Origin: Hoeflea ulvae
GTDB lineage: Bacteria; Pseudomonadota; Alphaproteobacteria; Rhizobiales; Rhizobiaceae
DNA: 64,000 bases
Direction: 5' to 3'
NCBI RefSeq assembly: GCF_026619435.1
Contig: NZ_JAOVZQ010000001.1
Location: forward strand, 4,471,501 to 4,535,500
A model generated the notes under the pieces. The model saw only the letters and a list, made by a program, of their open reading frames with translations, had not been told where the DNA came from and did not search any database. Of the stretch, positions 48,818 through 64,000 are shown one piece after another (within the stretch, counting starts at the first letter, position 1; each line of letters begins with the position of its first letter). Position numbers and translations under genes: made by a program.

Positions 48818-50374
48818 ATGTCCATTGACGCGCCCGGTGTCGATATTCGTTACCCCACGGACGGACCACCACTAATTGCTGAGTTGAGCACCTCGGTTAC
48901 TGCCTTTGTCGGCCCGACCCGCGTCAAACCCGCCGGTTCCGGAGGCAACATGGTGGTGCAGAAAATCCGGAGCTCCGATGAGTTCCTGCAGTCCTTTGGC
49001 ACCCCGGGCGCCAATTACGGTCCGGTCTCCCTTTCCGGCACCGACAAGACCGACGTGGATTTGATGGGCCACAACATTCGCGGTTTCTTCGCCAATGGCG
49101 GATCGGAAGCCTATGTCATTTCGACGTCGGGCAACGGCGCTGCAACCGCTTCCCAGACCTATGCCTTTGACGGCGAGCCTCCGCTCAAGTTCAACGCAAT
49201 CGCGGCCTCCGGTGGGCTCTGGGGCAATCAGGTTAGCGTGAGGATCACCAATTCCGCGGCCGCCAACCGGGTAGATGTCGAAATAACCTCCACTCTCGCC
49301 GGAGATGACGGCGATGTGGTCCGCACCGAACGCTACACCGCGGTTGAGGCGACTGCCGCCTCGATGACGGCACTGGCCTCTCAATTCGTGACCTTTGTCG
49401 CAATCGCGGAGGATGAGGTCGTTGCCGGGGCGCGGACGCTGGATCTGACGGCTGCGGCTGCCGGGATAAGCTTCGATCTGACCGGTGGCGCCGATTCCGG
49501 CGCACCGGCCGCAGATGCCGTCAGCTCGGCGATTCCGGAACTCGAAAAGCTCGAGGATGTCAGCCTGATCGTTCTGCCCAACAATGCCTGGCGCAACACC
49601 GATCCGCTGACCGCCAATGATGACTATCTCTTGATGGTGTCCCATGCCGAGGAAATGCAGGACCGGCTGGTCCTGGTGCATGTCGATGATTCCGTCGCGA
49701 CCTTCGAGGCCAATGCTGCGGGCCTGCCGCTTTCCTCCTACATGGCCGCTTACTACCCCGCCGGCAAGATCGTGATCCCGCTGACAGGTGACGCGCTGTT
49801 GACGCAATCAAGCGGGCTGATCGGCCATGTCGCCGGAGTCTATGCCCGCTCAGACAACCAGATCGGCGCATGGCAAAGCCCGGCCGGATTGCAGGCCGAC
49901 TTACGGGCCGTCACCGAATTGAGCAAACCGCTCAACCGCAAACAGCAGGCGCCGATGAACCAGAACGGGGTCAACGCGCTGCGCATCGTCAACGGCATCC
50001 AGACCGTCTATGGCGCACGCACGCGCGATATTGGCGGCCTCTATCAATATGTTGCCGTGCGACGGACGGCCTTCCTCATCGGCGACAGCCTGAGAAGCGC
50101 GCTGCAGCGGGTTGTCTTCGCGCGCAACATCGAATCCACCTGGCAGAATGTGAAGACCGCGGTCAATGGCTTCCTGCGATCCCTGTTCAACCGGCAAGCA
50201 TTCCAGGGTGCGACGGCCGAGGAGGCCTATCAGGTACTCTGCGGCCTCGGCGAATCCATGACCCAGACCGACATCGACAATGGCAAGCTCATTGTCCGCG
50301 CCCGTTTCAAGGCCGCCAAACCCGCAGAGTTCATCACCGTTTCGATAGAGCAGATACTTCAGGGTGAGACCTGA
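48818..50374 (+). CDS. Contractile sheath protein (Afp2-4/Pvc2-like)
   Basis: 518 residues. It begins SIDAPGVDIRYPTDGPPLIAELSTSVTAFVGPT, the usual 'APGVYVEE..' sheath start leading into 'STSVTAFVG', and ends with the conserved handshake region YQYVAVRRTAFLIGDSLRSALQRVVF, STWQNVKTAVNGFLRSLF and LIVRARFKAAKPAEFITVSIEQIL. An insertion of about 180 residues in the middle forms the outer surface domain. It contracts around the tube on firing. The start at 48818 has GGGAG upstream. Only one sheath gene exists, while Afp and PVC clusters have two or three. Confidence 0.92.
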   Translation: MSIDAPGVDIRYPTDGPPLIAELSTSVTAFVGPTRVKPAGSGGNMVVQKIRSSDEFLQSFGTPGANYGPVSLSGTDKTDVDLMGHNIRGFFANGGSEAYVISTSGNGAATASQTYAFDGEPPLKFNAIAASGGLWGNQVSVRITNSAAANRVDVEITSTLAGDDGDVVRTERYTAVEATAASMTALASQFVTFVAIAEDEVVAGARTLDLTAAAAGISFDLTGGADSGAPAADAVSSAIPELEKLEDVSLIVLPNNAWRNTDPLTANDDYLLMVSHAEEMQDRLVLVHVDDSVATFEANAAGLPLSSYMAAYYPAGKIVIPLTGDALLTQSSGLIGHVAGVYARSDNQIGAWQSPAGLQADLRAVTELSKPLNRKQQAPMNQNGVNALRIVNGIQTVYGARTRDIGGLYQYVAVRRTAFLIGDSLRSALQRVVFARNIESTWQNVKTAVNGFLRSLFNRQAFQGATAEEAYQVLCGLGESMTQTDIDNGKLIVRARFKAAKPAEFITVSIEQILQGET

Positions 50375-50421
50375 TGAGTGCCATTTGCCGACACGACACC
50401 GCGCCCCAGGGAGATTGAGAC

Positions 50422-50925
50422 ATGGCTGAAATCGGACTCTTTGACCCGTTTCTCACATTCAAGTTCAAGCTGTATTTTGACGGGGGTGCCCAGCCTGTGG
50501 CCGGAATCCAGAAAGTGGGGCCCATCAAGCGCAAGACCGAAGCGATCATGTGGCGCGATGGCGCCCATCCGCACAATTCCCAATCGGCCATCCCCGGCGG
50601 CAGCACCTTTGAAACCATCGCATTCGAACAGGGTCTTGGCCTTGATGACGGGCGATTTGAGGACTGGGCGCTCTCTGTCTCTGACTGGAAGAACGGCGAC
50701 GGCGCTTTCAAGAAAGCCAATTACCGCCGGACATTGCGGATCGAGTTTCTCGACATGACCGGCCAGCTCGCCCAGACCACCGGAGGCAGGAAGCTCAATT
50801 ATGTTCTCGATGGTGCCTGGGTCTCCGAATACCAGGCGCTGCCCGAACTGGATTCCAAATCCATGAACACCATCGGAATCAGCTCGTTCACCGTGAACAT
50901 AGAGGGCTGGCATCGTCAGCAATAG
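50422..50925 (+). CDS. Inner tube protein (Afp1/5, T4 gp19-like)
   Basis: 167 residues. The pattern LFDPFLTFKFKLYFDGGAQPVAGIQKVGPIKRKTEAIMWRDG, GGSTFETIAFEQGLGLDD, FEDWALSVSDWKNG, YRRTLRIEFLDMTGQLA, WVSEYQALPELDSKSMNTIGISSFTVNIEGW fits the phage T4 gp19 / Hcp-like tube family. Hexamer rings would stack inside the sheath. The gene lies 47 bases after sheath with GAGA before its ATG. The other tube-like gene (55332) is probably the initiator rather than a second tube. Confidence 0.9.
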   Translation: MAEIGLFDPFLTFKFKLYFDGGAQPVAGIQKVGPIKRKTEAIMWRDGAHPHNSQSAIPGGSTFETIAFEQGLGLDDGRFEDWALSVSDWKNGDGAFKKANYRRTLRIEFLDMTGQLAQTTGGRKLNYVLDGAWVSEYQALPELDSKSMNTIGISSFTVNIEGWHRQQ

Positions 50926-50937
50926 GTGAGTGATAGC

Positions 50938-51735
50938 ATGAGGGCGGGCAGCAATATGGTTGGCGCATATCCGGAGCCCGCTCACAGCCATGTCCGGATC
51001 GACCTTCAGGCGCGTCTGGACTGCATCGCCGCCATGATCGCGGACGAAAACGCGGCCGCGAGAACCTCCAGACTGATTTCCGTCCTGTTTGAAGATATAG
51101 CGGAAAGCCAGGCCGACAGGCTTTCCTCGAACCAGAGGCAGGTGCGGCTGCTACAGAAAGCTCTGGAACTGGGCCGGTGGCCGGCGCATTTCGTCACAAC
51201 CTGCCGGCATTGCAAGGTTCTGTCCGATGTAACGGTCTCGCGGCAGGATTTTCAGGATTCGATCCAAAGCCAATGCCCTGCCTCCTGTCAGTTGACGCTC
51301 AACGGGCAGACGCTCACCTTCCGCGCCCCCACCGGCATCGAGGAAAAGACCGTGCTGGAGGACGCCGGCCTCGGCAGCGCCGCCTTGCTCGGCATCCTGC
51401 ATGTGCCGCGCGACGCATCGCCCGCGGCAAACGGGTGCGAGGATGGCGAAGCATTGCCGGCTGTATCCGATGAGGATGCCGACGCGCTGCTGGTGAAAAT
51501 CCTTGAAGAGTGCAGCCCCCCGGTCGGCGTTCTCAACCTCGATTGCCCCTCCTGCCAGAACCAGATCAGGTTCTGGTTCGACAGCATCGACTGGATTTCG
51601 CGTCATGTCTGGTCGGCCATCGACGAGGTGACTGTCCTGGCCCGGGCCTTCGGCTGGACGGAAGAAGCCATCTGCGCCCTGCCGCAATCGCGGCGTGAGC
51701 TTTATCTGAAAGAAGCGCGGGGGATGGTGCAATGA
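50938..51735 (+). CDS. Zinc-ribbon T4-baseplate/chaperone-like protein
   Basis: 265 residues. Two cysteine pairs, TCRHCKV and CPSCQN, with a further QCPASC, suggest a split zinc ribbon. The C-terminus (RHVWSAIDEVTVLARAFGWTEEAICALPQSRRELYLKEA) resembles the 'hY.WsE.EIlaLP..RR..YL' ending of T4 gp26/gp51 and tail chaperone proteins. So I propose a baseplate-assembly or chaperone role. The start at 50938 has AGGTGAG 7 bases upstream; a GTG at 50926 directly abuts the tube stop but has no such site. Confidence 0.6.
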   Translation: MRAGSNMVGAYPEPAHSHVRIDLQARLDCIAAMIADENAAARTSRLISVLFEDIAESQADRLSSNQRQVRLLQKALELGRWPAHFVTTCRHCKVLSDVTVSRQDFQDSIQSQCPASCQLTLNGQTLTFRAPTGIEEKTVLEDAGLGSAALLGILHVPRDASPAANGCEDGEALPAVSDEDADALLVKILEECSPPVGVLNLDCPSCQNQIRFWFDSIDWISRHVWSAIDEVTVLARAFGWTEEAICALPQSRRELYLKEARGMVQ

Positions 51736-52625
51736 GCGGCATGCACCTGTTCCGGGCAATCGCATCCCAGCGCCGCTTTGACGTGGATACAGCCATTCCC
51801 AAGCCGGGCGCGGGCATTCCCGAGAACCGGTTTGCCGCATCCGGAAACCCGGACGCGCTTCTGATCGTGGATGATTTCACTGAGCCGGAAGACCAGCCAT
51901 TGGCCCCGCAGGCGGACATGGACACTGCCGTTCACGGCACGGCGGACGGCATCAACGCACAGCTGGCGGACAACACGCGGAAAACCACGCCACTGGACTC
52001 AGAAAGGGACCTCACTCCCAGGACTGATGCCACGCGCGAGCCTCGGAATCACCGACCGGCTGCGCGCACCGTTGCACGAGATATTGCGGACGACGCGGAG
52101 CAAAACGCGTACCAGCCCGCCCAGGGTGGACCAGGCCGGACTGACGAGCCGGCGCCGGCCCTGCCCCGGATCGGCGACTTGGAACCGACCGAAACGCCGG
52201 GCACGCCCGGCAGCGACGTCATCCGTTTCCGCCGTCCGCAAACAATTCCGGAACAACCCGGTAGACAGCCTTCGATCGAGGAACGGGTGCTGCAGGAAAT
52301 GTCCCGGCTCTCGGGGCTGGAACAGGTCGAAGATAATGCTGCCCAGGATGTCTCCGGCTTTGACGGCTTTGTCGATCCGCCGCGGGCGCCGGTGCATGAT
52401 GTCCCGTCCGCCCCTGCGAGGGCGTCGGACACGCAACAGATGGCGTTTCCCGCGTCGGAAAAATTCGCCCCGTCCGGTTCCGCCGTGCAAGCCGCGCCGA
52501 GCCTTTCCATCGGCCGCATCACCATCAATGCCGAGACACCGCCGCCCCGGAAAACGCCGGAGCCGAAATCCCGGGCGCCGGATGTTGCAGGGCAGCTTCG
52601 CCGCGCCGGTCTGCAAAGGTTGTGA
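51732..52625 (+). CDS. Disordered protein with C-terminal IGRITI motif, injection-system cluster
   Basis: 297 residues, rich in Pro, Ala, Asp, Glu and Arg and lacking hydrophobic core for residues ~20-235, so probably mostly disordered. A short conserved-looking end (SLSIGRITINAETPPPRKTP, then VAGQLRRAGLQRL) resembles a motif I recall from other injection-system clusters at about this position, and the start of the 95-residue protein at 55048. It overlaps the previous gene by four bases. Role unknown; a tail-length, linker or effector-docking factor is possible. Confidence 0.6.
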   Translation: MSGMHLFRAIASQRRFDVDTAIPKPGAGIPENRFAASGNPDALLIVDDFTEPEDQPLAPQADMDTAVHGTADGINAQLADNTRKTTPLDSERDLTPRTDATREPRNHRPAARTVARDIADDAEQNAYQPAQGGPGRTDEPAPALPRIGDLEPTETPGTPGSDVIRFRRPQTIPEQPGRQPSIEERVLQEMSRLSGLEQVEDNAAQDVSGFDGFVDPPRAPVHDVPSAPARASDTQQMAFPASEKFAPSGSAVQAAPSLSIGRITINAETPPPRKTPEPKSRAPDVAGQLRRAGLQRL

Positions 52626-52628
52626 CCG

Positions 52629-53678
52629 GTGGCTTTCGCACCCAGCCATTTCGTAGATGTCATGGGCCGCATGCGGCAGGTGCTGATTGATGAGCTCGCA
52701 CCGCACATTCCCGATGTCCAGGTGGAAGTCGGATACCCGGCACAGTTCAAGGTCGGCTCTCGCCCGCTCATCACGCTGTTTCTCTACCGCATCGAGCGCG
52801 TTGGACAGGCGGTCGCGCCGGATCCCGGCCTGCCTGTGGGTCTGGCGCTGCACGTGCTGTTGACCGCAATGTCTCCGCCCATTGCCGGAAACGCCAGCAT
52901 CGAGACCATCGGCATGCAGGAACTGAAAATCCTTGCCCTGGCTGCCCGGGTCTTTGGCGGGGATTATGATCTCGGATCCGTTCCGATCGCCGATGTGCCG
53001 GAGATCGGCCTGCTCGCGAAGATGCGGCCCGAAGATCTGCACGCGAAAGTGTCGCTGCAGAATCTCGACAATGAGGACATCAATCACATCTGGATGACCC
53101 AGACCGACACACCCTATCGCACCTCGATCGGCTACACCGTGCGTTACGGCCTGCTCACGCCATTTCATGCGCCGGATGAAGGGCCGCAGGTTCTGTCGGT
53201 CGAGCAGGACATGCAGGCCTATGACACAGCCGCCACGCTGCCGCTGCCGACTGATCCCGCCGAAAGCGTCCCGCTGACCCGTGTCTCCACCATCAACGGA
53301 GCCTTCATGCTGCTTGATAACGGCAAACTGGCGACCTCGACGACGGTTGAGCGGGACACCGACGAGACCACCGACATAGACCTTTCCCTCATCACCAGTG
53401 CGCATGATGCCATGCCGGTGGCGCTGGAGCTGGATGTGCTCGGCGCCGACAATGTCTGGGCGGAAGATGACGAGGACAAGCTGTCTCTGGCCCTGGTCAA
53501 CGCGGTTGCAGCCCGTGATCTGCCGCCGGATCTCGCCGATGCGGCTGTCAGCGCCACGATATCTCCCTCGGGGACCGACACCGGGTTTCGCATCCGCGCA
53601 GCCCGGCAGGATGGCGCCGCCTTGCCATTGTTTCCTTCAATCGTTGTCTTGGTGGACCGCCCGCCCGGGGAGGCGTGA
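52629..53678 (+). CDS. DUF4255 (Pvc16/Afp16-like) tail terminator/cap protein
   Basis: 349 residues from a GTG start. Residues 1-190 match DUF4255: VMGRMRQVLIDELAPHIPDVQVEVGYPAQF, PLITLFLYRIERVG, LALHVLLTAMSPP, and TQTDTPYRTSIGYTVRYGLL. The C-terminal ~130 residues (SATISPSGTDTGFRIRAARQDG) look like an added beta domain. In Afp/PVC, this protein caps the tube and sheath at their far end. It overlaps the ATPase gene through GTGA. Confidence 0.88.
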   Translation: MAFAPSHFVDVMGRMRQVLIDELAPHIPDVQVEVGYPAQFKVGSRPLITLFLYRIERVGQAVAPDPGLPVGLALHVLLTAMSPPIAGNASIETIGMQELKILALAARVFGGDYDLGSVPIADVPEIGLLAKMRPEDLHAKVSLQNLDNEDINHIWMTQTDTPYRTSIGYTVRYGLLTPFHAPDEGPQVLSVEQDMQAYDTAATLPLPTDPAESVPLTRVSTINGAFMLLDNGKLATSTTVERDTDETTDIDLSLITSAHDAMPVALELDVLGADNVWAEDDEDKLSLALVNAVAARDLPPDLADAAVSATISPSGTDTGFRIRAARQDGAALPLFPSIVVLVDRPPGEA

Positions 53679-53680
53679 CC

Positions 53681-55051
53681 ATGCCTGACTTCGTCACACT
53701 GGACACGGGGAGCGGCGCCGATTCTCCTCTCATCAACCGCCTGGCGGCGGAATGGGAGCGGGCGTTCCAGCTTCTGCAGATTGCGGTCAGCCACCGCAAG
53801 GACAAGCCGGTCAGCCCCGACATGATGAACGCGCTGGCCCAGTCTTCGATACAGGTCGACACGCTGCGAAAATCCGGCGGATGGAAGCCGGTCGAGAATC
53901 TGACCGGGTTTCGCGCCGGCGGCAACCAGCTGCTGTTCGACCTGGTCGCCCTGGCAATCCTGCCCACCGTGCGGCCGTCCGCGGTCTTCGGCCTGATGAA
54001 TTTGCAGCACCCCGCATCGACCGACCCCGCCCCCACTGCGGCCGCCATCTATGACATCCTGGCTCTGGACGGTCGCGATGACGCGGATTTCGCCCGGGCG
54101 CTGGCCGACATCGATGAGCTCGCCACGCGCGGCATCATGCGGTGCGACGGCGTCGGGCCGCTGAGAAGCTTTCATCCCGGCGCCCTGCTGACCACGCTGC
54201 TGTCTGGCACCGACCAACCGGTTTCCACGCCGGGAGGCGTCGTCCGCATGCCGGAGGGCAAGCCGCTTGAGACAGTGATCCTGCCCAAACAGAACATTCC
54301 GCGATTGCTGGAGGTTCTCGACATTGCGCGCTTCAAGGATCACGCGCGCAAGAATGGCGAGCATCTGGGCGGCCCGCTGGTTCTGCTCGCCGGTGGTCCC
54401 GGCACCGGCAAATCCTACGCGGCAAGCGCGCTTGCCCGCGAACTCAAGCGTCCGCTCTACCGCGTCGATTTCGGCATGGTGATGAGCAAATGGGTGGGCG
54501 AGACCGAGCGCAATCTCAACAGGATATTCGATTCGCTGAGCGGTCTGGGCGCGGCACTTCTGATCGACGAGGCCGACGCCCTGCTGGGCAAGCGCGTCAT
54601 GGTCAAGGAAGGCCGCGACCAGTATGCCAATGCCACTGTCGGGCATTTGCTGGCCCGGTTTGAACGTCACGATGGCGCGGTCTTTCTCACCACCAATCTG
54701 ATGGAGAACATCGACGACGCCTATTTCCGGCGGTTCGATTTCGTCATCGGTTTCCCCCGTCCCTCGGAAAGCGCCCGCAGAAAGATCTGGAACAACCATC
54801 TGCCCGGCGAATGCACCGGCGATGATCGCTTCGCCCTGATCCAGATGGCGGGAACGGTCTCCCTCACCGGCGGCGAGATCGCCAATGCCGCGGCCATGGC
54901 GCGGGCCTTCGCCCATGCCGGAAACACCCATGTGTCCGCCGCCCATCTCGCCCATGCGGTGTGGCGCGAGGTGACCAAGACGCCTCGCACGGTGGCCCGG
55001 CGCGATCTGGCAGCTCTTGCCGACTTCCTGAAAGCGGAGGAAGACTTGTGA
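53681..55051 (+). CDS. AAA+ ATPase (Afp15/Pvc15-like)
   Basis: 456 residues. An N-terminal helical domain of about 230 residues precedes an AAA+ module: Walker A GGPGTGKS at 238-245, pore-loop-like MVMSKWVGETERNLN, Walker B LLIDEADALLG at 293-303, sensor 1 FLTTNLMENID and arginine finger region YFRRFDFVIGFPRP. Such ATPases are a mark of eCIS/tCIS clusters and may help particle assembly or effector loading. GGGGAGG 7 bases before ATG 53681 favours it over the overlapping GTG at 53675. Confidence 0.92.
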   Translation: MPDFVTLDTGSGADSPLINRLAAEWERAFQLLQIAVSHRKDKPVSPDMMNALAQSSIQVDTLRKSGGWKPVENLTGFRAGGNQLLFDLVALAILPTVRPSAVFGLMNLQHPASTDPAPTAAAIYDILALDGRDDADFARALADIDELATRGIMRCDGVGPLRSFHPGALLTTLLSGTDQPVSTPGGVVRMPEGKPLETVILPKQNIPRLLEVLDIARFKDHARKNGEHLGGPLVLLAGGPGTGKSYAASALARELKRPLYRVDFGMVMSKWVGETERNLNRIFDSLSGLGAALLIDEADALLGKRVMVKEGRDQYANATVGHLLARFERHDGAVFLTTNLMENIDDAYFRRFDFVIGFPRPSESARRKIWNNHLPGECTGDDRFALIQMAGTVSLTGGEIANAAAMARAFAHAGNTHVSAAHLAHAVWREVTKTPRTVARRDLAALADFLKAEEDL

Positions 55052-55335
55052 AACCCCTGTCTCCCAGCCGCAATGGACTGAGCATCGGCTCGATTTCGAT
55101 TGATGCCGGTCGCCTGAGCGCCGACGAAGCGCGTGCTTTCGGCGAGCGGCTGCGCATGGCGGTGGCCGGACTTGATGTGCCGAGCCTGACCAGACCCGTG
55201 CATATCGATGCCCTGTCGGTCCGGCTCCCCCAGTCCAAACGGCTGGCCACGCCCTCGATCAGGGCCGACGCGGTCCGCCACGCCCTCAATGACGCCATCC
55301 GGAACCATCTCGCCACCAAGGGAAGACTGTCATGA
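55048..55335 (+). CDS. Small conserved injection-system protein with SIGSISID motif
   Basis: 95 residues from a GTG start that overlaps the ATPase stop (GTGA), with GGAGGAAG upstream. The sequence NGLSIGSISIDAGRLSADEARAFGERLRMAVAGLD, then HIDALSVRLP and a helical end, has the form beta strand - helix - beta strand. The first part mirrors the SIGRITIN end of the protein at 51732. Function unknown; its place between the ATPase and the baseplate genes suggests an assembly or hub-adaptor role. Confidence 0.65.
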   Translation: MKPLSPSRNGLSIGSISIDAGRLSADEARAFGERLRMAVAGLDVPSLTRPVHIDALSVRLPQSKRLATPSIRADAVRHALNDAIRNHLATKGRLS

Positions 55336-55985
55336 GCGCTCCCAGCCGCGGCGTCCTGATCGAATACACTGCCGCGTCCGACGCGATCATCCTGCCGTTT
55401 CAGTACAATATGGAAACGATGACCCGGACCCGCGGGGCCGCGTTGAAGGTAGCGGGAAGCGCAAGCGTTGGCGGCAGTTTCGCATTCTCGACGCCGATGG
55501 AAACACCGCGCGTCATGCAGAGCGCAGAGCTGGAAGACGAGACCCTGTCGATGGAGCTGATCTTCAGCGCCGGCGATTACATGGACCGGGATGGCTGGGA
55601 GCTCGGCACCGCCGGGATCGCGCCGGTGCTCGACGCGCTGCGATCGCTGGTCGAGCCGCGGTCGCAAAGGCCGGGCAGCATGCGGATCATGGGGGAACTG
55701 GGGCTGCTCGGCGACCGCGCATTCCAGCGCGATGTCTCGCCTTCGGTCGTCCTGTTCGTGGCCGGCGCCTATGTGCTGCCGATGGCGATGAAGAGCGTCA
55801 GTTACACCATCGAGGAATTCTATCCCAACCTGGCGCCAACCCTGGCCCGCGCCCAGATCGCCATGCAGATCATCGAGGCGAACAATCCATTCATCTTCGC
55901 CGAACGGCTCCGCCAGCAACGCAGCGCGCTGCGGCTGAAGGAACGGCCGGAATCCATCATCCCCGACCTGAAGGACATCTTCTGA
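55332..55985 (+). CDS. CIS_tube-domain baseplate hub/tube-initiator protein (Afp7 N-part-like)
   Basis: 217 residues. VLIEYTAASDAIILPFQYNMETMTRTRG is the typical opening of the CIS tube N-terminal domain, followed by DETLSMELIFSAGDY, IAPVLDALRSLVEP and AYVLPMAMKSVSYTIEEFYPNLAPTLARAQIAMQI. This forms the first ring on the hub on which the tube grows. In Afp7 and its kin the same domain is fused to a LysM domain; here the LysM part is the next gene. Start overlaps the previous stop by four bases. Confidence 0.8.
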   Translation: MSAPSRGVLIEYTAASDAIILPFQYNMETMTRTRGAALKVAGSASVGGSFAFSTPMETPRVMQSAELEDETLSMELIFSAGDYMDRDGWELGTAGIAPVLDALRSLVEPRSQRPGSMRIMGELGLLGDRAFQRDVSPSVVLFVAGAYVLPMAMKSVSYTIEEFYPNLAPTLARAQIAMQIIEANNPFIFAERLRQQRSALRLKERPESIIPDLKDIF

Positions 55986-55992
55986 GGACGCC

Positions 55993-56340
55993 ATGGCAGA
56001 GAGACCGGAAAATCGCTACTCAACAACCGCGCCATTTGTTCCGCAGATCGGCGACCCCAACCCGTTTCGGGGATTGAAACCACGCTTGGTGCGGACCTTG
56101 CCCGGCTATGTCGAGCACACGCTCGCGCCCAGCGACCGCCTCGATACGCTCGCACTTTCCTATTTCGGCGACCCGCGCCTGTGGTGGGCCATTGCGCAGG
56201 CGAATCCGGCCGTCTTCTTCCCGGCCGACCTGGTCTATCGCGCCAACAGCGAGGAGGTTCCCGTCGCAGCATTCGGGACCATGCCCGCCAAGGCCGGCAC
56301 CAAGATCCTGATCCCCCGCAAGCCGGAGACATCGACATGA
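55993..56340 (+). CDS. LysM/gp53-like baseplate protein
   Basis: 115 residues: a short N-terminal segment and a LysM-like module (YVEHTLAPSDRLDTLALSYFGDPRLWWAIAQANP, through GTKILIPRKP). In T4 gp53, Afp7 and similar proteins, this domain staples the baseplate hub to the wedge rather than binding peptidoglycan. Coupled to the hub gene downstream by ATGA. Confidence 0.8.
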   Translation: MAERPENRYSTTAPFVPQIGDPNPFRGLKPRLVRTLPGYVEHTLAPSDRLDTLALSYFGDPRLWWAIAQANPAVFFPADLVYRANSEEVPVAAFGTMPAKAGTKILIPRKPETST

Positions 56341-57464
56341 TCCCGAAGCTGCCGTCGATCTTTCCCGAAGGTGCCTCCGGCCCGGCTTCGCCGAAGATCT
56401 TTCTCGGCTCGTCCCCGGTTGAGGCCTCCGATGTCTACGGCTCGCTGTCGACCATCAAGGTCAACACATCACGCAAGGGACCAGCGCTCGCGACGATCGA
56501 ACTGACATGTTTCCGGGATGAGGCCGGACGCTGGCCGATCATCGACAATGGCTATTTCCGACGCTGGAAGGCCATCCGGCTGGAAGTCGATTTCGAGGCC
56601 TTCAGCCAGCACTTGCTGACCGGCTACATCCTGAAAATGACGCCGGAATTTCCCGAGGATCGCGCCGAAGCCAAGCTGACCGTCGAAATCCAGGATGAGA
56701 CGGCCCTTCTCGACAGGCAGCAGAAGGAGCGCATCTGGCCAAGCGACGGCTCCGGGCAAAGTGTCAGCGACGATTTCGTCGTCCGCGCCGTTGCCAACGA
56801 CTACGTGCAGCCGCTGAGCCTGTCGCCCTACTCCGCCGAAGGCCAGATTTCCCGGACGCTCAATCAGTCCAAGACCGATTATGCCTTTCTTCTCGAGCGC
56901 GCCGACGCCAGCGCGTATGAATTCCGGATCGTCGACAGCGAGATCTATTTCGGCCCGCCCCGGCTGAGCAGCTCGGCACAACCGGCACTGCTGGTATATG
57001 CCGGTGGTGATACCAACACGACCGGTTTCAAGGTGGAAGACAGCGCCGACGCACCCGAGGCCGCAAACGCGGCGGCCACCGACGCGGCATCTGGCGCCGT
57101 CAACGACAACCGGATCACGCCGGACCTGCCGATTCTGGGTGATGTCGCGGTGGAAACCGGCGATGGCGTAGCGCCCTATGAGCTGCGGGTCGCCCCCCAA
57201 GGCGATCTGTCCGAATCCGCGCTGCGGGCGCTGGCACAAGGCCAGATCAACGAGGCCAGTCTGTCGATCCGGGCCGAATGCGAGATCGACGGCACGCTCT
57301 ATGGGCATGTCCTGCTGCCGGGCCAGCTGGTCGAGGTCGACGGTGTCGGCGACCGTTACGGCGGCGCCTGGTATGTCGACACGGTCGAGCATGAGCTCGA
57401 TGCACTGGGCTACAGGCAAAAGGCCGTTCTGCTTCGCAACGGCGTCGGAAGGGAGGTTGTCTGA
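56337..57464 (+). CDS. gpD-like baseplate hub protein (T4 gp27/VgrG N-part)
   Basis: 375 residues. KIFLGSSPVEASDVYGSLSTIKVNTSRKGPALATIELTCF, LLTGYILKMTPEFPE, VRAVANDYV, and the late SIRAECEIDGTLYGHVLLPGQLVEVDGVGDRYGGAWYVDTVEH are the late-control protein D / gp27 pattern. It would form the trimeric hub carrying the spike. An Ala-rich stretch with charged residues (~240-270) is an insertion. The following gene, the spike, is separate, while in Afp8 the two are fused. Confidence 0.82.
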   Translation: MIPKLPSIFPEGASGPASPKIFLGSSPVEASDVYGSLSTIKVNTSRKGPALATIELTCFRDEAGRWPIIDNGYFRRWKAIRLEVDFEAFSQHLLTGYILKMTPEFPEDRAEAKLTVEIQDETALLDRQQKERIWPSDGSGQSVSDDFVVRAVANDYVQPLSLSPYSAEGQISRTLNQSKTDYAFLLERADASAYEFRIVDSEIYFGPPRLSSSAQPALLVYAGGDTNTTGFKVEDSADAPEAANAAATDAASGAVNDNRITPDLPILGDVAVETGDGVAPYELRVAPQGDLSESALRALAQGQINEASLSIRAECEIDGTLYGHVLLPGQLVEVDGVGDRYGGAWYVDTVEHELDALGYRQKAVLLRNGVGREVV

Positions 57465-58282
57465 TGGCTGACATCGACATGTCCTCGATCAACGACGTAC
57501 TGTCGGAGCTGCAGACCAAGAAATATGGCCGCTACAAGGGCGTCGTGACCGACAACATCGATCCCGACAGACGCGGACGTGTGAAGGTTCAGGTCGAGGC
57601 CGTGTTCGGTGCCACCGAAACCGACTGGATCGAAGGCATCTTCCCCCTGGGCGGCAATAGCGACGAGAGCTTTGTGTTCGTTCCGGCCATCGGGTCGATC
57701 GTGACGGTGGAATTCATCGGCGGCGACATTTCGGCCCCGGTCTGGACAGGGACCTATTACGCCCCGGACGTCACCCACACCGAAGCGCTCGATGAGGCGG
57801 GTGATGTGCTGTCGCTGATCCGGACTCGCTCCGGCCTGGAGATACGAATCCGCGACGATGGCGAAAAACACTCGCTGAAAATCCTCACCGCAGAAGGCGC
57901 CGAGATCGGCGTGGACGAGGACGGCAACCTGAAAATGACCGACAAGAACGGCGCCGGTGTCGAGATTGCCGCCGATGACAAGAGCGTCAAGCTCCAGGGC
58001 CACGGCCAGGGCAGCCTCACCATCGATGACAGCACCGTCACGGCGACCGATGGCAGCGCGTCGATCGAGATCAGCAACGGCAACATCACGATGGATGCCA
58101 CCTCCATCAAGCTCAATGGCGACCAGGTCGACCTGGGCCGCGGCGCCTCCTCGCCCATCCTCAATGCAACGGCCTTCATGCAGCTTTACGCGGCGCATGT
58201 TCACACGCCGGCGCCACCCGGACCGCCGACCCCGCCGATTGTCCTGCAGGCCGTCAAACTGCTCAAGGTGAAGGGAGCATGA
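57464..58282 (+). CDS. gpV-like spike protein (Phage_base_V, Afp8 C-part)
   Basis: 272 residues. The N-terminal OB-fold (YKGVVTDNIDPDRRGRVKVQVEAVFG, WIEGIFPLGG, FVFVPAIGSIVTVEFIGGD, PVWTGTYYAPD) is the gpV/gp5 signature. A run of triple-beta-helix repeats (SLKILTAEGAEIGVDEDGN.. SLTIDDSTVTATDGSASIEISNGNITMDATSIKLNG) makes the needle, and the end HVHTPAPPGPPTPP resembles the iron-binding HxH tip of phage spikes. This may make a separate PAAR tip unnecessary. Confidence 0.88.
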   Translation: MADIDMSSINDVLSELQTKKYGRYKGVVTDNIDPDRRGRVKVQVEAVFGATETDWIEGIFPLGGNSDESFVFVPAIGSIVTVEFIGGDISAPVWTGTYYAPDVTHTEALDEAGDVLSLIRTRSGLEIRIRDDGEKHSLKILTAEGAEIGVDEDGNLKMTDKNGAGVEIAADDKSVKLQGHGQGSLTIDDSTVTATDGSASIEISNGNITMDATSIKLNGDQVDLGRGASSPILNATAFMQLYAAHVHTPAPPGPPTPPIVLQAVKLLKVKGA

Positions 58283-58283
58283 G

Positions 58284-58727
58284 ATGAGTCTGCCTGATCC
58301 CATCAATGCACCCGGCGCCTATCTCGGCTTCCCCCTGCGCATCAGCGGCGATGGGGCACGCCAGTCCGGGCGCAAGCTCCATCTCAAGGAACTGGTGATC
58401 CAGTCCTTGCTCACGGCTGCCGGCGAACGCGTGTTCGTGCCGAATTTCGGCATCGGCATCCAGAGATTTGTCTTCGCCCCGATGACCGAAAACCTGTGGG
58501 AGCGCATTGAAAACAGGCTGATCGGCGATCTGTCCGAAATCCTGCGCGGCGATGCCGACACCAACAGCATCAGCGTTTCGGCCCGGCCCGATGCCGGGCA
58601 ATCGGAAATCCTGCGCGTCGTGGTCCGCTACAGGCTGATTGCCATCGATCGCGAAGACAGTGTCGAACTGGCCATCAGCGGCGATGACATGATGAGCGCC
58701 GAAACCACCCAGAAGGAGCTTCGCTGA
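58284..58727 (+). CDS. gp25-like baseplate wedge protein (Afp9-like)
   Basis: 147 residues. GAYLGFPLRISGDGARQSG, HLKELVIQSLLTAAGERVFVPNFGIGIQRFVFAPMTENLWERIENRLIGDL and VVVRYRLIA give the GPW/gp25 family pattern, with the start of the sheath-like 'EFG' motif as PNFGIG. It nucleates sheath assembly on the baseplate. The start overlaps nothing but lies one base after the spike stop; the end overlaps the next gene by one base (TGATG). Confidence 0.9.
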   Translation: MSLPDPINAPGAYLGFPLRISGDGARQSGRKLHLKELVIQSLLTAAGERVFVPNFGIGIQRFVFAPMTENLWERIENRLIGDLSEILRGDADTNSISVSARPDAGQSEILRVVVRYRLIAIDREDSVELAISGDDMMSAETTQKELR

Positions 58728-59953
58728 TGGCCGAGCGCCCGCAACCCGAACTGGTCTGGGATGATGGCTGCCCCGATTGCGGCACCCGAAACACGGCTCT
58801 GCCTTCCGGCAGGGTTCCGGTTCTGGATGATTTCGACTGGTCGGTGCGCGATTTCGAGGGTTTTCGGCGCGTCATGCTCGAAGAGCTCGCAGCCGCTGAT
58901 CCCGCCCGGGAGAAATGGACCCAGGGCGATCACGAAATCGTTCTGGTGGAAGTGCTGGCCGCAGCCCTCGACCGGTCCAGTCACGCACTCGACGACATCT
59001 TTTACGAACGTTTCCTCGAAACCGCGCGGCGCCCGGCCTCCGTCGTCCGCCTGCTTGAAGCCATTGACGGACGTGATGCGGCCGAATGGGCAATCGAATC
59101 CGTCATCAGCGTCAAGGAGGCGGAGGAATACGGCTTTGCCTCCACCGGCGGCGGCGACCGGAGGCAGGCCTTGCTCAACGCACTCGCGGCACGCCCGGAC
59201 TTCATTCCGCTTGCCAAAGCCGCAGGTTCCTCGGCCCTGACCACCAATATCGCCCTGATCACCCAGGAAGACGTTGACCGGGCCCTGCTGGAATGCCCTG
59301 CCGTCGTGCAGTCGAGCACCCTGTTTTCGCTGGAAAAGGGCCTGCAGATCTATGGCGCGCGCATCCTGCTCAAAGGTTCCGGAGACCTGCTGCTGCACGA
59401 TCTGGCGGGCGGCCTGCAGGAAGACGATTTTACCGATTTCAGGGACTGGTACGACCGGCGGGAGAATCTGACGATTCCGCCTGCAACCGACGATCCTGAC
59501 AGCGGCAAGGTCGACGAAGACACCCTGAGGAACATGACGATCCGCACGGCCATCAAGCGGGTTCTAGAACCGCTACTGCCGGTAGGCTCGCGTTTCATGC
59601 TGACCGATGGCAAGCGGGTCGGCCTGTATCTGCGACTGTGCGTCAAGGTCGCGTCCAACCGCTACAAGTCGGAAATGCAGGCGGCTGTCCGCGCCGCGCT
59701 GCGTGCCTTCTTTGACGCCTCGTCCTGGCCCTTCGGCCTGCCGATCCGCGAAAGCGACGTGATCGAGGCGATTGCCGGGGTTGATGGCGTCGAGGGCATC
59801 ATCATCAGCCGGATCAACATCGTCGGGCGTCCGCAGCTTTCGACCCGCATTGTCGAACCCTTGCCGGATGAAGCCATTGTCTTCGATTTTGAAAGCCCGT
59901 CGCCGACCGACGGGTACCTCGTTCTCGAAATCAAGGGAGGACGGCCAGGATGA
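58727..59953 (+). CDS. Baseplate J-like wedge protein (Afp11-like) with N-terminal CxxC
   Basis: 408 residues. An N-terminal CPDCGT followed by WSVRDFEGFRRVMLEELAAADPA and GDHEIVLVEVLAAALDRSSHALDDIFYERFLETA (helical wedge start) leads to a C-terminal domain like baseplate J (SRFMLTDGKRVGLYLRLCVKV, VIEAIAGVDGVEGIIISRINI). It probably forms one arm of the wedge with the next protein, as gp6/gp7 or Afp11/Afp12 do. The CxxC may bind zinc or form part of a disulfide. Coupled on both sides. Confidence 0.78.
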   Translation: MAERPQPELVWDDGCPDCGTRNTALPSGRVPVLDDFDWSVRDFEGFRRVMLEELAAADPAREKWTQGDHEIVLVEVLAAALDRSSHALDDIFYERFLETARRPASVVRLLEAIDGRDAAEWAIESVISVKEAEEYGFASTGGGDRRQALLNALAARPDFIPLAKAAGSSALTTNIALITQEDVDRALLECPAVVQSSTLFSLEKGLQIYGARILLKGSGDLLLHDLAGGLQEDDFTDFRDWYDRRENLTIPPATDDPDSGKVDEDTLRNMTIRTAIKRVLEPLLPVGSRFMLTDGKRVGLYLRLCVKVASNRYKSEMQAAVRAALRAFFDASSWPFGLPIRESDVIEAIAGVDGVEGIIISRINIVGRPQLSTRIVEPLPDEAIVFDFESPSPTDGYLVLEIKGGRPG

Positions 59954-62805
59954 CCATGGCAAGGGATCTCACCCGCTGGAACCGGTCGGGCCTGTCCCGG
60001 TTCGACTATGTCAATGGCGGCGCGGCGGAGTGGCTGGAAGCGCTCAGGGTGCATTTCCTGCAATTGTCGGCCGGAAAGAACAATGGCAGCGTCCTGCCCG
60101 CCGCGCTGCCAAGCGATTCCGGCGAGTTTTCCGCCATGCTGGCGGGCGACAGCGCGCTCTCCATGGACGAACTATCAGCCCTTGGCGCCACCTGGCAATT
60201 TCTCGAAGCCCGCGAAACGGATCCGAAATTCAGGGGCTCGAACCGGGCGCGCAGTTTTGAAGAGGGGGTTCTTGCCCGCTACTACAACAATTCGCCTGAC
60301 CAGGCGCAGCATATATCCCGCGCATTCGCGCGCGCGGTCTATCTGCTGTCGCGCTCGCTCGATGCCTATGCGCAGGAAGGCTTCATAACCACGGTCACCC
60401 AGCCGGAAAACATGCGCCGGCTGCTGGCGATGACCGGCTTCCGGGCCACTCCGCCCTCATCCGCTCAGATGCCTGTCGCGCTGATCCTGAAAGCGGATTC
60501 CGCAGACGAGAGTTTCGAGGCCGGCCTGCAGATCGAACCGAGGGTGCCAGGCGAAAAGGCGCCGCTGACATTTGAAAGTCTCGATCCGGTTGACGCGACG
60601 CCGGTTCTGAACAAATTCGACGCGGCCGGTAAATTCGAGCCCAGCGTGGCCTGGTCCGGCAACAGGACATCCGAAACCCTGGTCCGCTTCACCACCCTTT
60701 CTGCAGTCGAGGGCGTTGCCCGGCGCTCGATCGGCCTTTTGCTTCGCAGCAATGGCGCGCCCTTGCCCTTGCGCGTTGTCGAGATAGACGGCCGGCAGAT
60801 CTCTGCGAACAGAATTCCCGCGGCAGCAAGTCCGGCCCAATCCGAAAGCCTGCTGCTGGCGCCATCCGTGTCGGCCGTGCCCCGGAAGACAGGACCGGGC
60901 TGGTATCCCTTGAACAGGGATCACGGATTGCGCATCGGCATGGCGGTGGCACCTTCTGCCTCGGCCACGAGCGGATACAGGATCTCCGCCGTTGCGGGCA
61001 GCGATGTCTATCTGACCGATCGCGACGGCGCGCCTGCCACCGCATCCATCTCGCAACTGTTCGAGGCCGTGCCCGAATCGGTGTTGGCGAATGCGAGCCG
61101 AAACGCGGCTGCCGTCCCGCCGGTGCCGACACTCCCCTTTCTGCTCAACACCTCGCCCGCGGATCTGAACGCGCTGACGGTCAGTCCGAGCGCCGGCCCC
61201 TTGCCGGTCAGCGACAGCATTCGCAACAGCCCGGAGAAACAGCTCTTCATCGACAATGTGGATGTGAAAGTGCTGGAACCGGGAGCGTGGCTGGTTGGCG
61301 AACTCGAGGATGGCGGGCTTGCAGCCTTTCTCATCATAGCCAGCGGCCAAGCCGATGACAGCACCTGGGTCGAGCTGGAGGCAGCCGACGGCCAGGACAC
61401 CATCCACGCGATCAGAACCATCACTGCCGGCTTCAACGCCTCGCCTGTGATCGCCCGTGAGAAGCGCTCCAACAGCCCGCTGGTCCAGGCTGGCGGCATG
61501 ATCAGGACCGGGCTTGCCCCGGACGCGATTGCGGAAACCATTCTGGGCCGCAGGCGAAATTTTCTCGTCGTTCCCGACGCGCCGGCCGGCGGTGCCGCCT
61601 ATGCCATCTCCGGACGGCTGCAAAGGCAGGGCCAGTTTCTCCGCATCAACATCGACACCGGCGCCGCGCTGCAGGACTTGCGCAACAGTGCCCTCACAGC
61701 GGGCAACGTCAGCATCCATGGCAATGTCGTCACCTTCGGGCACGGCAAGACCATGCCGCCGACACCGCTGGGGTCCGGCTCCGGCACGGTCGAGGGGCAG
61801 TCCTTCAGTTTTGCCGGCGGGCCGCTGGCAACACGTCTCTCCGCCTTTGACGAAGGCGGCGTCGCCCCCGATCTGACGGTGCATGTCGGCCAGCGGGAAT
61901 ACCGACGGATTTCCTCGCTGGACAAGCTCACGGGAGAGGATGAGGCCGTCTATGACATCCAGGTTGATGTCGACGGGCGAAACCGGTTCATCTTTCCGCG
62001 CCGATTGCCCACTGGAACCGACAATGTGGTGATCTCCCGGCTGCGCATCGGTGCCGGCGAAATCGGCAACAGGGTTCCCGAATATGCCGTCACCAAGCTG
62101 TCGAAGTCGAAGGGGAGCATTGCTTCCGTGGTGCAGCCGCTGGCGCCGCAGCTTGGCCGCGACCTTCAATCGATCGAGACCCTGAAAAAGGACAATGGCA
62201 GGGCCATTCGCAATGTCTCCCGGGCCATCACCGACGAGGATTTCGCCATACTGGCGGAACGCCACGCAGGGGTGTGGCAAGCCAGTGCGCGCTCGACCAT
62301 TGACGGCTTCGGCGGTGGACGCATCGTGGTTGCGGTCACCATCGTGCCGGCCGGCGGCGGTTCCATCGATAGCCTCACCGCGCCTCTTGCTGCCAGTTTG
62401 CAAGCCGCGGCCATCCCGTCGGTTTCGGTGCAGATATCGCGTTTCGTGCCGGTTCGGCTCACATGCAGCCTGACCTGCGTTTTGAAAAGCGGCTACACGG
62501 CCAGCGACGACATGGTGTCCGAAATCAAGGCCATCGTCCTGGCCCGCTATGGCCTGCAATATCGAACCATCGGCGACACGCTGTTCGTTTCGGGCATCGT
62601 CAGCGCCGTCGAGGCGCACCAGGCGATTGATTATCTGGATATGGAAACGGACCTCAAACCGGAGGCGAACGGAACCCTGCCTGCGGTGAAGGTGGTGCGC
62701 AATTCGGACGACAGCCTGCAATCCGTGATCGCCGGCAAGACCGAAAGCATCTTCATCGAAAGCGATGACCTGACCGTCGTCCTCACACCATCAACGGAGC
62801 GGTGA
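59950..62805 (+). CDS. Large baseplate J-like wedge protein (Afp12-like)
   Basis: 951 residues. The N-terminus (LSRFDYVNGGAAEWLEALRVHFLQL) and helical region (DSLSRSLDAYAQEGFITT-like) match the start of large wedge proteins; the middle is beta-rich and repetitive; the C-terminal ~250 residues have the J pattern (AITDEDFAILAERHAGVWQASARSTIDGFGGGRIVVAVTIVPAGGG, LAASLQAAAIPSVSVQISRF). Overlaps the previous stop by ATGA. It is the largest baseplate part and likely sets the wedge ring. Confidence 0.82.
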   Translation: MTMARDLTRWNRSGLSRFDYVNGGAAEWLEALRVHFLQLSAGKNNGSVLPAALPSDSGEFSAMLAGDSALSMDELSALGATWQFLEARETDPKFRGSNRARSFEEGVLARYYNNSPDQAQHISRAFARAVYLLSRSLDAYAQEGFITTVTQPENMRRLLAMTGFRATPPSSAQMPVALILKADSADESFEAGLQIEPRVPGEKAPLTFESLDPVDATPVLNKFDAAGKFEPSVAWSGNRTSETLVRFTTLSAVEGVARRSIGLLLRSNGAPLPLRVVEIDGRQISANRIPAAASPAQSESLLLAPSVSAVPRKTGPGWYPLNRDHGLRIGMAVAPSASATSGYRISAVAGSDVYLTDRDGAPATASISQLFEAVPESVLANASRNAAAVPPVPTLPFLLNTSPADLNALTVSPSAGPLPVSDSIRNSPEKQLFIDNVDVKVLEPGAWLVGELEDGGLAAFLIIASGQADDSTWVELEAADGQDTIHAIRTITAGFNASPVIAREKRSNSPLVQAGGMIRTGLAPDAIAETILGRRRNFLVVPDAPAGGAAYAISGRLQRQGQFLRINIDTGAALQDLRNSALTAGNVSIHGNVVTFGHGKTMPPTPLGSGSGTVEGQSFSFAGGPLATRLSAFDEGGVAPDLTVHVGQREYRRISSLDKLTGEDEAVYDIQVDVDGRNRFIFPRRLPTGTDNVVISRLRIGAGEIGNRVPEYAVTKLSKSKGSIASVVQPLAPQLGRDLQSIETLKKDNGRAIRNVSRAITDEDFAILAERHAGVWQASARSTIDGFGGGRIVVAVTIVPAGGGSIDSLTAPLAASLQAAAIPSVSVQISRFVPVRLTCSLTCVLKSGYTASDDMVSEIKAIVLARYGLQYRTIGDTLFVSGIVSAVEAHQAIDYLDMETDLKPEANGTLPAVKVVRNSDDSLQSVIAGKTESIFIESDDLTVVLTPSTER

Positions 62806-62806
62806 A

Positions 62807-64000
62807 ATGGCAAATGATGTCTTCGACAGCCGCGTTGGCGCCCTGCTCTACAGCGAAGTCCCGGAGGTCTATCGCCTGTATGACGACCGGATCGCTCCCG
62901 GCGATGCCGGCGAGGCCGGACGCAAGGGCGATCTGGAGGCCTATCTCTACGGTCTCGGGCATCTGCTCGATCGCTTCGATTCCACCCTGGTTCAATTCTA
63001 TGCCGATGGGTTTGCGGTCCCCGTCGAGGAGTTTGACGGCCGTTCCATGCAGCCTTGGCTGCTGTCCTATTACAGCAACCTGTTCGGTGTGGAGCTCCGG
63101 TCGCCGACACATGAAGGCCGGCTCAATGAATTGCGGCTGAGCAACTGGCTGGTGCGCCGCCGCGGAACAACCATCGGCATAGCAGAGGGCGCCCGCGCTG
63201 TCTTAAACCAGGCAAGTGTCGCGGTGCATGGCATGGACCGCATCTTGCGCGCGCCGCATCTCAAATCCGGCCTGACCACGCATTTTGAAGTCAGCCGCAT
63301 CTGGCACCCGAAGGACGCGGTCATCATCGCCAAGCCATTGCCCGGCGGCGCCGAGGAAGTGAAGGGACTGTCGGCGCGCCGTCCCCGGAATCATGGCGGA
63401 CTGCCAAACGGCACCCCGCATTTCGGAAAATTCATGCGCGCCCGCGCATCCGGCCTGGAAGCCTCCGACGCCGAAAGATGGCCGGCCGCGCTTTCCACCG
63501 GAACCACGGAGACGCCGGGTTTCGTGGTCAGGGACCGCCGCGGCTATCCCTGTTTCCCCGAGGGCTATGATGACCGTTCGATGCGCACCCCCGATATCCG
63601 CCAGGAGCGACGCAACCGCCGCAAGCATGTCGGCCAGACCAACCCGCGCACCCTGACGCTGTTTGTCAGGCCGCCGACAGGGATTTTCACCGGCGCGGAA
63701 ACGGTCGTAACCAGTTCGAACCCGATTGAGAAAATACAGAAAATTCCACCTGGAACACCTCCGGGCCCGGCGACGGTCGCTGTGAGAGCGCAAAGACCGC
63801 TGGTCGCCGACAAGGAGATCCTGCACCGGCGCAACCTCATCAAGATCAGCAAGAAAACCGCCAATGACGACAACGGGGGATTTCGCCAGAACGCCAACGA
63901 GCTTCTCATTCGCGATCTGAAGCTGGACGGCGAGATCCTCATCACCCAGACGGACGGATCGGGCGACAAGACGATCATTTTCGAAAACTGCGCCATCCGA
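62807..64000 (+). CDS. gpI-like tail/baseplate protein, cut by window end
   Basis: 398 codons are open to the last base. The opening (LLYSEVPEVYRLYDDRIA, GLGHLLDRFDSTLVQFYADG, PWLLSYYSNLFGVELRSP, RLSNWLVRRRGTTIGIAEGARAVL) fits the phage tail protein I family, which links wedge to fibres. After about residue 140 the sequence becomes a long, charged, less typical region, so the gene may be a fusion or a much larger protein. RBS GGAG lies before ATG 62807. No stop is seen. Confidence 0.75.
   Translation, partial: MANDVFDSRVGALLYSEVPEVYRLYDDRIAPGDAGEAGRKGDLEAYLYGLGHLLDRFDSTLVQFYADGFAVPVEEFDGRSMQPWLLSYYSNLFGVELRSPTHEGRLNELRLSNWLVRRRGTTIGIAEGARAVLNQASVAVHGMDRILRAPHLKSGLTTHFEVSRIWHPKDAVIIAKPLPGGAEEVKGLSARRPRNHGGLPNGTPHFGKFMRARASGLEASDAERWPAALSTGTTETPGFVVRDRRGYPCFPEGYDDRSMRTPDIRQERRNRRKHVGQTNPRTLTLFVRPPTGIFTGAETVVTSSNPIEKIQKIPPGTPPGPATVAVRAQRPLVADKEILHRRNLIKISKKTANDDNGGFRQNANELLIRDLKLDGEILITQTDGSGDKTIIFENCAIR

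What the first reader, a model, noticed from the sequence alone, without database searches (positions are those of the whole stretch)
48818..64000. Contractile injection system operon in a rhizobial-type chromosome
The sequence shows a continuous run of sheath, tube, cap, AAA+ ATPase and baseplate genes with tight start/stop overlaps. Established knowledge: sheath + gp19 tube + DUF4255 cap + Afp15-like ATPase defines eCIS/tCIS particles. Inference: this is a functional, host-encoded particle with an unknown target. Such systems are not commonly described in this group, and the target could be a eukaryote, a competitor or the cell itself.
Basis: partly seen in the sequence, partly recalled or inferred. 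Interest (0 to 1): 0.88.

Follow-up and report, generated by a model that had tools for sequence, protein, structure and literature searches.

The report
Phage-tail-like injector in a rhizobial relative
A bacterium of the Rhizobium family carries a complete, apparently acquired set of genes for a spring-loaded protein injector derived from a phage tail; the machine type is already known, but its likely cargo and one fast-changing part shared with many relatives are not explained.

Summary
It runs past the window end: 17 co-directional genes over 23.7 kb, ending in a DUF6519/beta-helix protein and a 1520-aa eCIS_core (DUF4157) protein. None of the 17 is a capsid, portal, terminase or integrase gene. 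Its sheath forms a clade with close eCIS-type sheaths that excludes the four phage sheaths tested; deeper branches are unsure. The host is probably Hoeflea (Rhizobiaceae). The operon sits between tRNA-Val and glgP, a variable site in the genus; its cap family was not found in 17 other genomes of the genus. The architecture (DUF6519 fibre, 'eBAP5') is already catalogued, with a Rhizobium example: a new member of a known kind. Two points are less ordinary. (1) The cargo protein joins eCIS_core, a module shared by all 42 homologues found, and a rare C-terminal domain of unknown fold. (2) Gene 4, a disordered protein without Pfam family, has counterparts in 60 of 62 testable eCIS loci (tallied with a profile built mostly from them; our gene was held out and found), beside a gene resembling T4 hub-assembly proteins. 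No tape measure was recognised. Function and target are untested.

The parts
48204..48278 (+). tRNA-Val (GAC), left border of the insertion; next to cpdR in all 14 same-genus loci fetched
48640..48817 (+). AT-rich leader (33% G+C) with sigma-70-like sites; possible promoter region (consensus match only)
48818..50374 (+). Gene 1: sheath, 518 aa (the only sheath gene of the operon)
50422..50925 (+). Gene 2: gp19-type inner tube, 167 aa
50926..51735 (+). Gene 3: 269 aa, two invariant CxxC pairs; predicted fold resembles phage baseplate hub assembly proteins of T4 type
   Evidence: moderate TM-scores, 0.36-0.50 for the best 11; PDB search gave nothing
51732..52625 (+). Gene 4: 297 aa, disorder-type composition; C-terminal stretch LSIGRITINA matches a profile of position-4 proteins of other eCIS loci; no Pfam family
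52629..53678 (+). Gene 5: Pvc16_N cap/terminator, 349 aa
53675..55051 (+). Gene 6: AAA+ ATPase (Afp15/Pvc15-like by position and synteny), 458 aa
55048..55335 (+). Gene 7: small protein (95 aa from the GTG overlapping the ATPase stop; 124 aa from the first GTG), unknown
55332..55985 (+). Gene 8: 217 aa, conserved at the same place in relatives; no family or PDB match; tube-initiator-like role is a guess
55993..56340 (+). Gene 9: 115 aa, PHROG baseplate wedge match; chance-level tail X and gp53 matches in Pfam
56337..57464 (+). Gene 10: hub (GPD-like), 375 aa; weak matches to three solved VgrG-type chains
57464..58282 (+). Gene 11: spike (OB fold, Phage_base_V), 272 aa
58284..58727 (+). Gene 12: gp25-like wedge, 147 aa
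58727..59953 (+). Gene 13: baseplate wedge, 408 aa; matches the C-terminal end of TIGR02243 (below its cut-off)
59950..62805 (+). Gene 14: baseplate wedge, 951 aa; matches the middle of TIGR02243 (below its cut-off)
62807..64000 (+). Gene 15: tail protein, 598 aa in all, cut by the window end (stop at 64603 if numbering is continued); adaptor position, no family match. Followed outside the window by gene 16 (1044 aa, DUF6519 + beta helix, 64615-67749) and gene 17 (1520 aa, eCIS_core, 67908-72470)

Best explanation
A complete, horizontally acquired eCIS, best placed in the DUF6519-fibre (eBAP5) class. Shown: the genes, their order, open frames, the insertion site and relatives. Inferred: sheath and tube assemble on the hub/spike/wedge baseplate with help of gene 3 (resembles T4-type hub assembly proteins), are closed by the Pvc16-type cap and filled with the aid of the AAA+ ATPase. 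The 1520-aa protein is the cargo: its eCIS_core part holds it at the spike; after contraction the hydrophobic module (conserved over about 401-840) enters the target membrane and passes the C-terminal domain (about 860-1520; invariant DHxPE and HHxxE motifs, fold unknown) into the cell. The beta-helix protein (gene 16) is the likely target-binding part. Target unknown; cell-free release is assumed, not shown.
For: Core genes and eCIS_core. Synteny with named relatives. Sheath tree: own plus eight close relatives one clade (97/95) that excludes four phage sheaths. DUF6519 above cut-off, plus beta helix. Modular cargo: residues 559-816 lie inside an alignment in 42 of 42 homologues; DHxPE and HHxxE occur in 17 of 17 close and 0 of 25 distant ones. 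Closest published analogue: Tme of S. davawensis, with DUF4157, transmembrane helices and a C-terminal nuclease (PMC11126660, passages). Insertion: cpdR-tRNA-Val in 14 of 14 fetched same-genus loci; a glgP match begins 258-297 nt behind the tRNA in 2 of the 10 where glgP was within reach.
Against: The sheath also matches phage sheath profiles strongly (PHROG, E 3e-35), and in the tree one cut, very long phage branch (S-TIM61) attaches nearest to the own clade while three phages fall among Streptomyces eCIS sheaths, so the tree separates phage from eCIS only near our protein. No tape measure recognised, and no Tail_P2_I match for gene 15 at E 10. C-terminal cargo domain: no shared Pfam family beyond eCIS_core in 18 members; model poor (pLDDT 65) without structural match. 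None of the 17 genes matched a lysis or export family. A self-directed use, as in Streptomyces, is not excluded.
Confidence: 0.8

Rival explanations
1. The particle acts inside the producer or on sister cells (as the cytoplasmic Streptomyces CIS does) rather than as a released weapon.
For: None of the 17 genes matched a lysis family; the closest published cargo architecture (Tme) is tied to the producer's own differentiation (PMC11126660, passages).
Against: The operon has a DUF6519/beta-helix fibre-like protein. Conventional fibres are reported absent from the S. coelicolor cluster (PMC10066040, passages; PMC12237407, section 6), although PMC10020575 (section 11) proposes sco4242 as a putative fibre.
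Confidence: 0.15
2. A prophage or tailocin remnant rather than an eCIS.
For: Gene order follows contractile tails; the sheath matches phage sheath profiles; the insertion lies next to a tRNA gene.
Against: The 17 genes include Pvc16_N, AAA+ ATPase and eCIS_core and no capsid, portal, terminase or integrase. Of 43 phage records with a sheath match none covers 80% of the query; the 12 listed cover at most 44%. The own sheath clade excludes the phage sheaths (with long-branch warnings).
Confidence: 0.03
3. An intact-looking but silent island, acquired and not expressed.
For: Pvc16_N was not found in 17 other genomes of the genus; nothing is known of its expression.
Against: Seventeen open frames, mostly overlapping or abutting, behind an AT-rich leader with promoter-like sites; metagenomic relatives keep 86% sheath and 81% cargo identity.
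Confidence: 0.15

Closest known systems
eBAP5 (DUF6519-fibre) eCIS class, e.g. the Rhizobium grahamii 'mega pectin lyase' fibre (PMC12923769, passages read)
   Same: DUF6519 part and right-handed beta helix in the fibre-like protein; a separate tail protein upstream of it in adaptor position
   Different: Our 598-aa protein does not match Tail_P2_I; two wedge genes with TIGR02243 matches are present, whereas the paper says this class largely lacks Afp12 homologues
Syntenic eCIS of Shimia, Paracoccaceae, Reinekea, Palleronia, Nitrosomonas marina, Aliiglaciecola, Ideonella (loci L013, L017, L016, L028, L021, L025, L030)
   Same: Same order of the recognisable genes from sheath to baseplate, about 22-47% identity in most matched parts
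   Different: Own sheath and its closest relatives form a separate clade; gene 4 finds none of them by plain BLAST
Tme-type effector of Streptomyces davawensis CIS (PMC11126660, passages read)
   Same: DUF4157 + hydrophobic helices + distinct C-terminal domain; largest frame of the cluster
   Different: Tme's C-terminus is an EndA-like nuclease; ours has DHxPE/HHxxE motifs and no family match; homology of the middle module to phage tape measures was not tested here
S. coelicolor type IId CIS (PMC12237407 section 6; PMC10020575 section 11; PMC10066040 passages)
   Same: Tube, sheath, cap and ATPase; no recognised tape measure although all particles analysed had one length
   Different: Cytoplasmic, no conventional fibre seen; our system has a DUF6519/beta-helix protein

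Membership tests
eCIS | Contractile sheath and gp19-type tube | tested here: met
eCIS | Pvc16_N (DUF4255) cap and AAA+ ATPase | tested here: met
eCIS | Hub, spike, gp25 and wedge baseplate genes | tested here: met
   hub GPD and the two TIGR02243 matches are below their cut-offs
eCIS | eCIS_core (DUF4157) protein in the operon | tested here: met
   49.7 bits, cut-off 22; HExxH seen
eCIS | No head, portal, terminase or integrase genes in the unit | tested here: met
   none among the 17 genes scanned; small frames between them were not scanned
eCIS | Tape measure (Afp14) | tested here: inconclusive
   no family match; gene 4 or the cargo protein might serve
eCIS | Released contractile particles | not testable with these tools
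   needs electron microscopy
eBAP5 class of eCIS | DUF6519 part in the fibre-like protein | tested here: met
   26.1 bits, cut-off 22.4; partial, model positions 265-382 of 593
eBAP5 class of eCIS | Tail_P2_I adaptor | tested here: inconclusive
   598-aa protein in the right place, no Pfam match at E 10
eBAP5 class of eCIS | Largely lacks an Afp12 homologue (PMC12923769, passages) | tested here: inconclusive
   two wedge genes match different parts of TIGR02243; not resolved into Afp11/Afp12
Prophage / tailocin | Head genes in the unit, or sheath closest to phage sheaths | tested here: not met
   (tree has long-branch warnings)
AFP/PVC lineage | Three sheath paralogues in the operon and an Afp14 tape measure (recalled) | tested here: not met
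   one sheath in the operon; no tape measure match
Type VI secretion (T6SS i-iii) | TssJLM membrane complex (recalled) | not tested
   none among the 17 genes; the rest of the genome was not searched

The most novel reading that the evidence does not exclude
Gene 4 is an unnamed core part of a broad eCIS group (proteobacterial, actinobacterial, chloroflexal, Bacteroidota and one archaeal MAG locus): a disordered polypeptide with a fixed C-terminal signature and a freely varying, sometimes tandem-repeat, middle. Working with gene 3, which resembles T4-type hub assembly proteins, it takes part in hub assembly or length setting in injectors that have uniform length but no recognised tape measure. 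Against a simple one-chain ruler: S. coelicolor particles (60 tube layers, 268 nm) are far too long for single chains of the 242-267 aa measured in ten Streptomyces loci here.
Probability: 0.15. Interest if true: 0.7.

Novelty: new member of a known kind. Interest (0 to 1): 0.42.

Why it matters
It documents a full, apparently acquired eCIS in a Hoeflea-like genome, with an empty site in two sister genomes, and so offers a natural with/without comparison. Its cargo protein has a conserved, rare, unassigned C-terminal domain. The comparison across loci points to genes 3 and 4 as widespread parts, which makes the open question of how CIS without a recognised tape measure fix their length testable by deletion in a laboratory model.

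Tried and rejected
Prophage/tailocin: rejected. Gene 3 as a transposase zinc ribbon (the Pfam hit, 25.3 bits, cut-off 25.4): rejected, because it follows the tube in 11 of 12 loci and its model resembles phage hub assembly proteins: of 11 BFVD matches at E <= 0.001, two are named baseplate hub assembly protein and three baseplate protein, the rest unnamed or uncharacterised; none in PDB. C-terminal cargo domain as a nuclease: considered from its HHxxE motif and dropped; beyond eCIS_core each family in the 18-member scan hit one member only, at E 0.017 or weaker (one a Cas9 PI domain, E 0.16), and the model of a natural 348-aa relative is weak and unmatched. Gene 4 as a one-chain ruler: weakened by published S. 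coelicolor dimensions. The cargo as ruler: weakened by intact particle assembly without sco4256-4258 (PMC10066040, passages). Border repeat: none found beyond a 10-nt match. Viral contigs encoding the cargo: none. An N-terminal gene-4 profile did not find our gene 4, and a first C-terminal pattern missed it too (54 of 58 matched, ours not among them). A 16S search of the genome found nothing, so the host name rests on plasmid similarity.
Full report
What is there. The window is G000:C1:4471501-4535500 of a 5.12-Mb, two-contig genome. From 48818 a tight + strand operon runs beyond the window end. Genes in window numbering: sheath 48818-50374, tube 50422-50925, gene 3 50926-51735, gene 4 51732-52625, cap 52629-53678, ATPase 53675-55051, gene 7 55048-55335, gene 8 55332-55985, gene 9 55993-56340, hub 56337-57464, spike 57464-58282, gp25 58284-58727, wedges 58727-59953 and 59950-62805, tail protein 62807-64603, fibre-like protein 64615-67749, eCIS_core protein 67908-72470, then glgP at 72708. 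Families. None of the 17 genes matched a head, portal, terminase or integrase family.

Host. The second contig carries replication genes 91.8% identical to a plasmid of Hoeflea sp. IMCC20628; the other matching plasmid records are mostly Rhizobiaceae by name.

An insertion. tRNA-Val(GAC) lies at 48204-48278. A search with the cpdR-tRNA stretch matched 18 of 18 genus genomes, own included. I fetched that place from 14 of the 17 other genomes. cpdR and tRNA-Val are there in 14 of 14; no operon protein matched at E 1e-10 in any of these stretches of about 19.5 kb. A glgP match lies within the stretch in 10 of 14: 258 and 297 nt behind the tRNA in 2, and after about 2-14 kb of other genes in 8; in 4 it was not reached. 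The site is thus a variable spot, occupied here by the eCIS. No border repeat was found. G+C of the operon inside the window (0.629) is like that of the rest (0.622), gene 16 is lower (0.566), so composition gives little sign of foreign origin.

How common. Pvc16_N was found in 3 of 121 related genomes (own; one strong; one below the family cut-off) and in none of the 17 other genomes of the genus, two of which are only 75-77% complete. eCIS_core at E < 1e-10 (my cut on the listed values) occurs in 11 of 394 family genomes and 11 of 397 order genomes, own included in both; at the tool's threshold it is 22 and 20, all over the family cut-off but the extra ones at E 1.8e-9 or weaker; two of these (E 4e-4 and 7e-4) are of the own genus. 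A sheath match at E <= 1e-20 was found in 17 of 385 class genomes, own included.

Relatives. The sheath search scored 7998 candidates and gave 147 hits; 18 of the 120 listed reach 40% identity over 99-100% of the query, the best 86%; named weaker hits include Shimia and Nitrosomonas. The cargo search scored 8000 candidates and gave 42 hits; two full-length or nearly full-length relatives carry the names Rhodobacter sp. and Falsihalocynthiibacter arcticus. In a tree of 33 sheaths, own and eight close relatives form one clade (97/95). Four phage sheaths lie outside it; one (S-TIM61, cut, branch 6.99) attaches next to it, three fall among other eCIS sheaths near Streptomyces rows, and the tool warns of long branches. 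So the tree shows that our sheath's own group is not a phage group, and no more. Seven named loci show the same order of recognisable genes (12 loci examined).

Cargo. The 1520-aa protein has eCIS_core at 237-305, a stretch conserved over about 401-840 and hydrophobic over about 521-800, of which residues 559-816 lie inside an alignment in 42 of 42 homologues, and a C-terminal part in which DHxPE and HH[LMIV][IV]E occur in 17 of 17 close and 0 of 25 distant homologues. A search with the C-terminal 561 aa, limited to proteins of 0.55-1.75 times that length and 8000 scored candidates, found one further protein, of 348 aa; among 385 class genomes it matched only our own and one weak place with a stop (E 8.5e-5). 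Fold and activity are unknown. Calling it the cargo rests on the published role of DUF4157 (PMC8213781, PMC11126660, PMC13277306; passages).

Fibre and class. The 1044-aa protein matches DUF6519 in part and a right-handed beta helix. [quoted passage not shown] Our 598-aa protein stands in the adaptor's place but has no meaningful family match, and two wedge genes are present, so the class is assigned on the fibre alone.

Gene 3 and gene 4. Gene 3 has four invariant cysteines and an invariant R-R-x-x-Y near its end in the 11 sequences aligned. Its model (pLDDT 82) matches 11 predicted viral proteins at E <= 0.001, two of them named baseplate hub assembly protein and three baseplate protein, with TM-scores (by query length) of 0.36-0.50; among weaker hits is the hub subunit of phage SP-15, and in SP-15 a gene so annotated follows the tube gene, as here. 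Gene 4 has no Pfam match, nor have ten relatives above cut-off. In 62 loci with tube, gene 3 and at least 1500 nt behind it, 60 have a frame matching a C-terminal gene-4 profile; L026 and L075 do not. Most of these loci helped build the profile, so this is a tally, not a test. The test is our own gene 4, left out of the profile: it was the best of 1356 sequences (window and neighbour frames, 200 shuffles; E 6e-4, next 0.29). An N-terminal profile did not find it. Lengths of 58 gene-4 proteins run from 215 to 462 aa, median 284; 284 of 1653 pairs are similar by BLAST, none with ours. From the rows I left out 17 frames under 200 aa, two loci without a frame, one wrong frame (L083) and one with masked letters (L064). 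In Halomonas the middle is a 39-nt tandem repeat, 10.7 copies; ours has none of note.

Why gene 4 is worth a look. In S. coelicolor all analysed particles measure 268 nm with 60 tube layers, and the authors note that a tape measure gene is absent (PMC12237407, section 6; the same absence for Streptomyces in PMC10066040 and PMC10286715, passages). Gene 4 follows a gene resembling hub assembly proteins, roughly where phages keep the tape measure (recalled). But chains of about 250 aa cannot span such tubes singly, so a simple ruler is unlikely; hub assembly, packing or another role is possible. Two searches of the held library (2 papers listed, none read; 9 listed, of which I read passages of six and a section of one of these) showed me no assignment of this gene; wider absence is not claimed.

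Verdict. A real, complete eCIS, new member of a catalogued class, in a probable host genus for which one search found no paper naming both the genus and contractile injection systems. Interest is moderate; the unassigned cargo domain and gene 4 carry most of it.

Noticed in passing
L005:9615-11117 (G000:C1:2795614-2797116): A second, solitary full-length sheath gene of another lineage (46.5% identical to a sheath on an Aureibacter plasmid). The genome has one gp19-type tube match only, in the window operon, and no other CIS gene was seen among the neighbours scanned. No match in the 17 other genomes of the genus.
   Followed up: partly
L004:5708-8315 (right border of the insertion): glgP is split into two frames here (longest 476 codons) while three sister genomes checked have one frame of 827-846; a real break or an assembly error.
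   Followed up: partly
L195-L208, between tRNA-Val and glgP: The same spot carries different genes in sister genomes, judged by eye from translations: ABC transporter-like genes (L195), nitrate/nitrite-reductase-like genes (L205), a run that may be phage structural genes (L200).
   Followed up: no
L020:13448-13867: The gene-4 counterpart of Halomonas ventosae holds 10.7 copies of a 39-nt tandem repeat.
   Followed up: no
L213 (Rhizobium sp. WYJ-E13 plasmid); Pararhizobium sp. A13 plasmid NZ_CP149511.1: Large plasmids of Rhizobiaceae carry more distant eCIS-like loci: sheath, spike, gp25 and cargo similarities in L213; a cargo-module match and a match to the solitary sheath in Pararhizobium.
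   Followed up: partly
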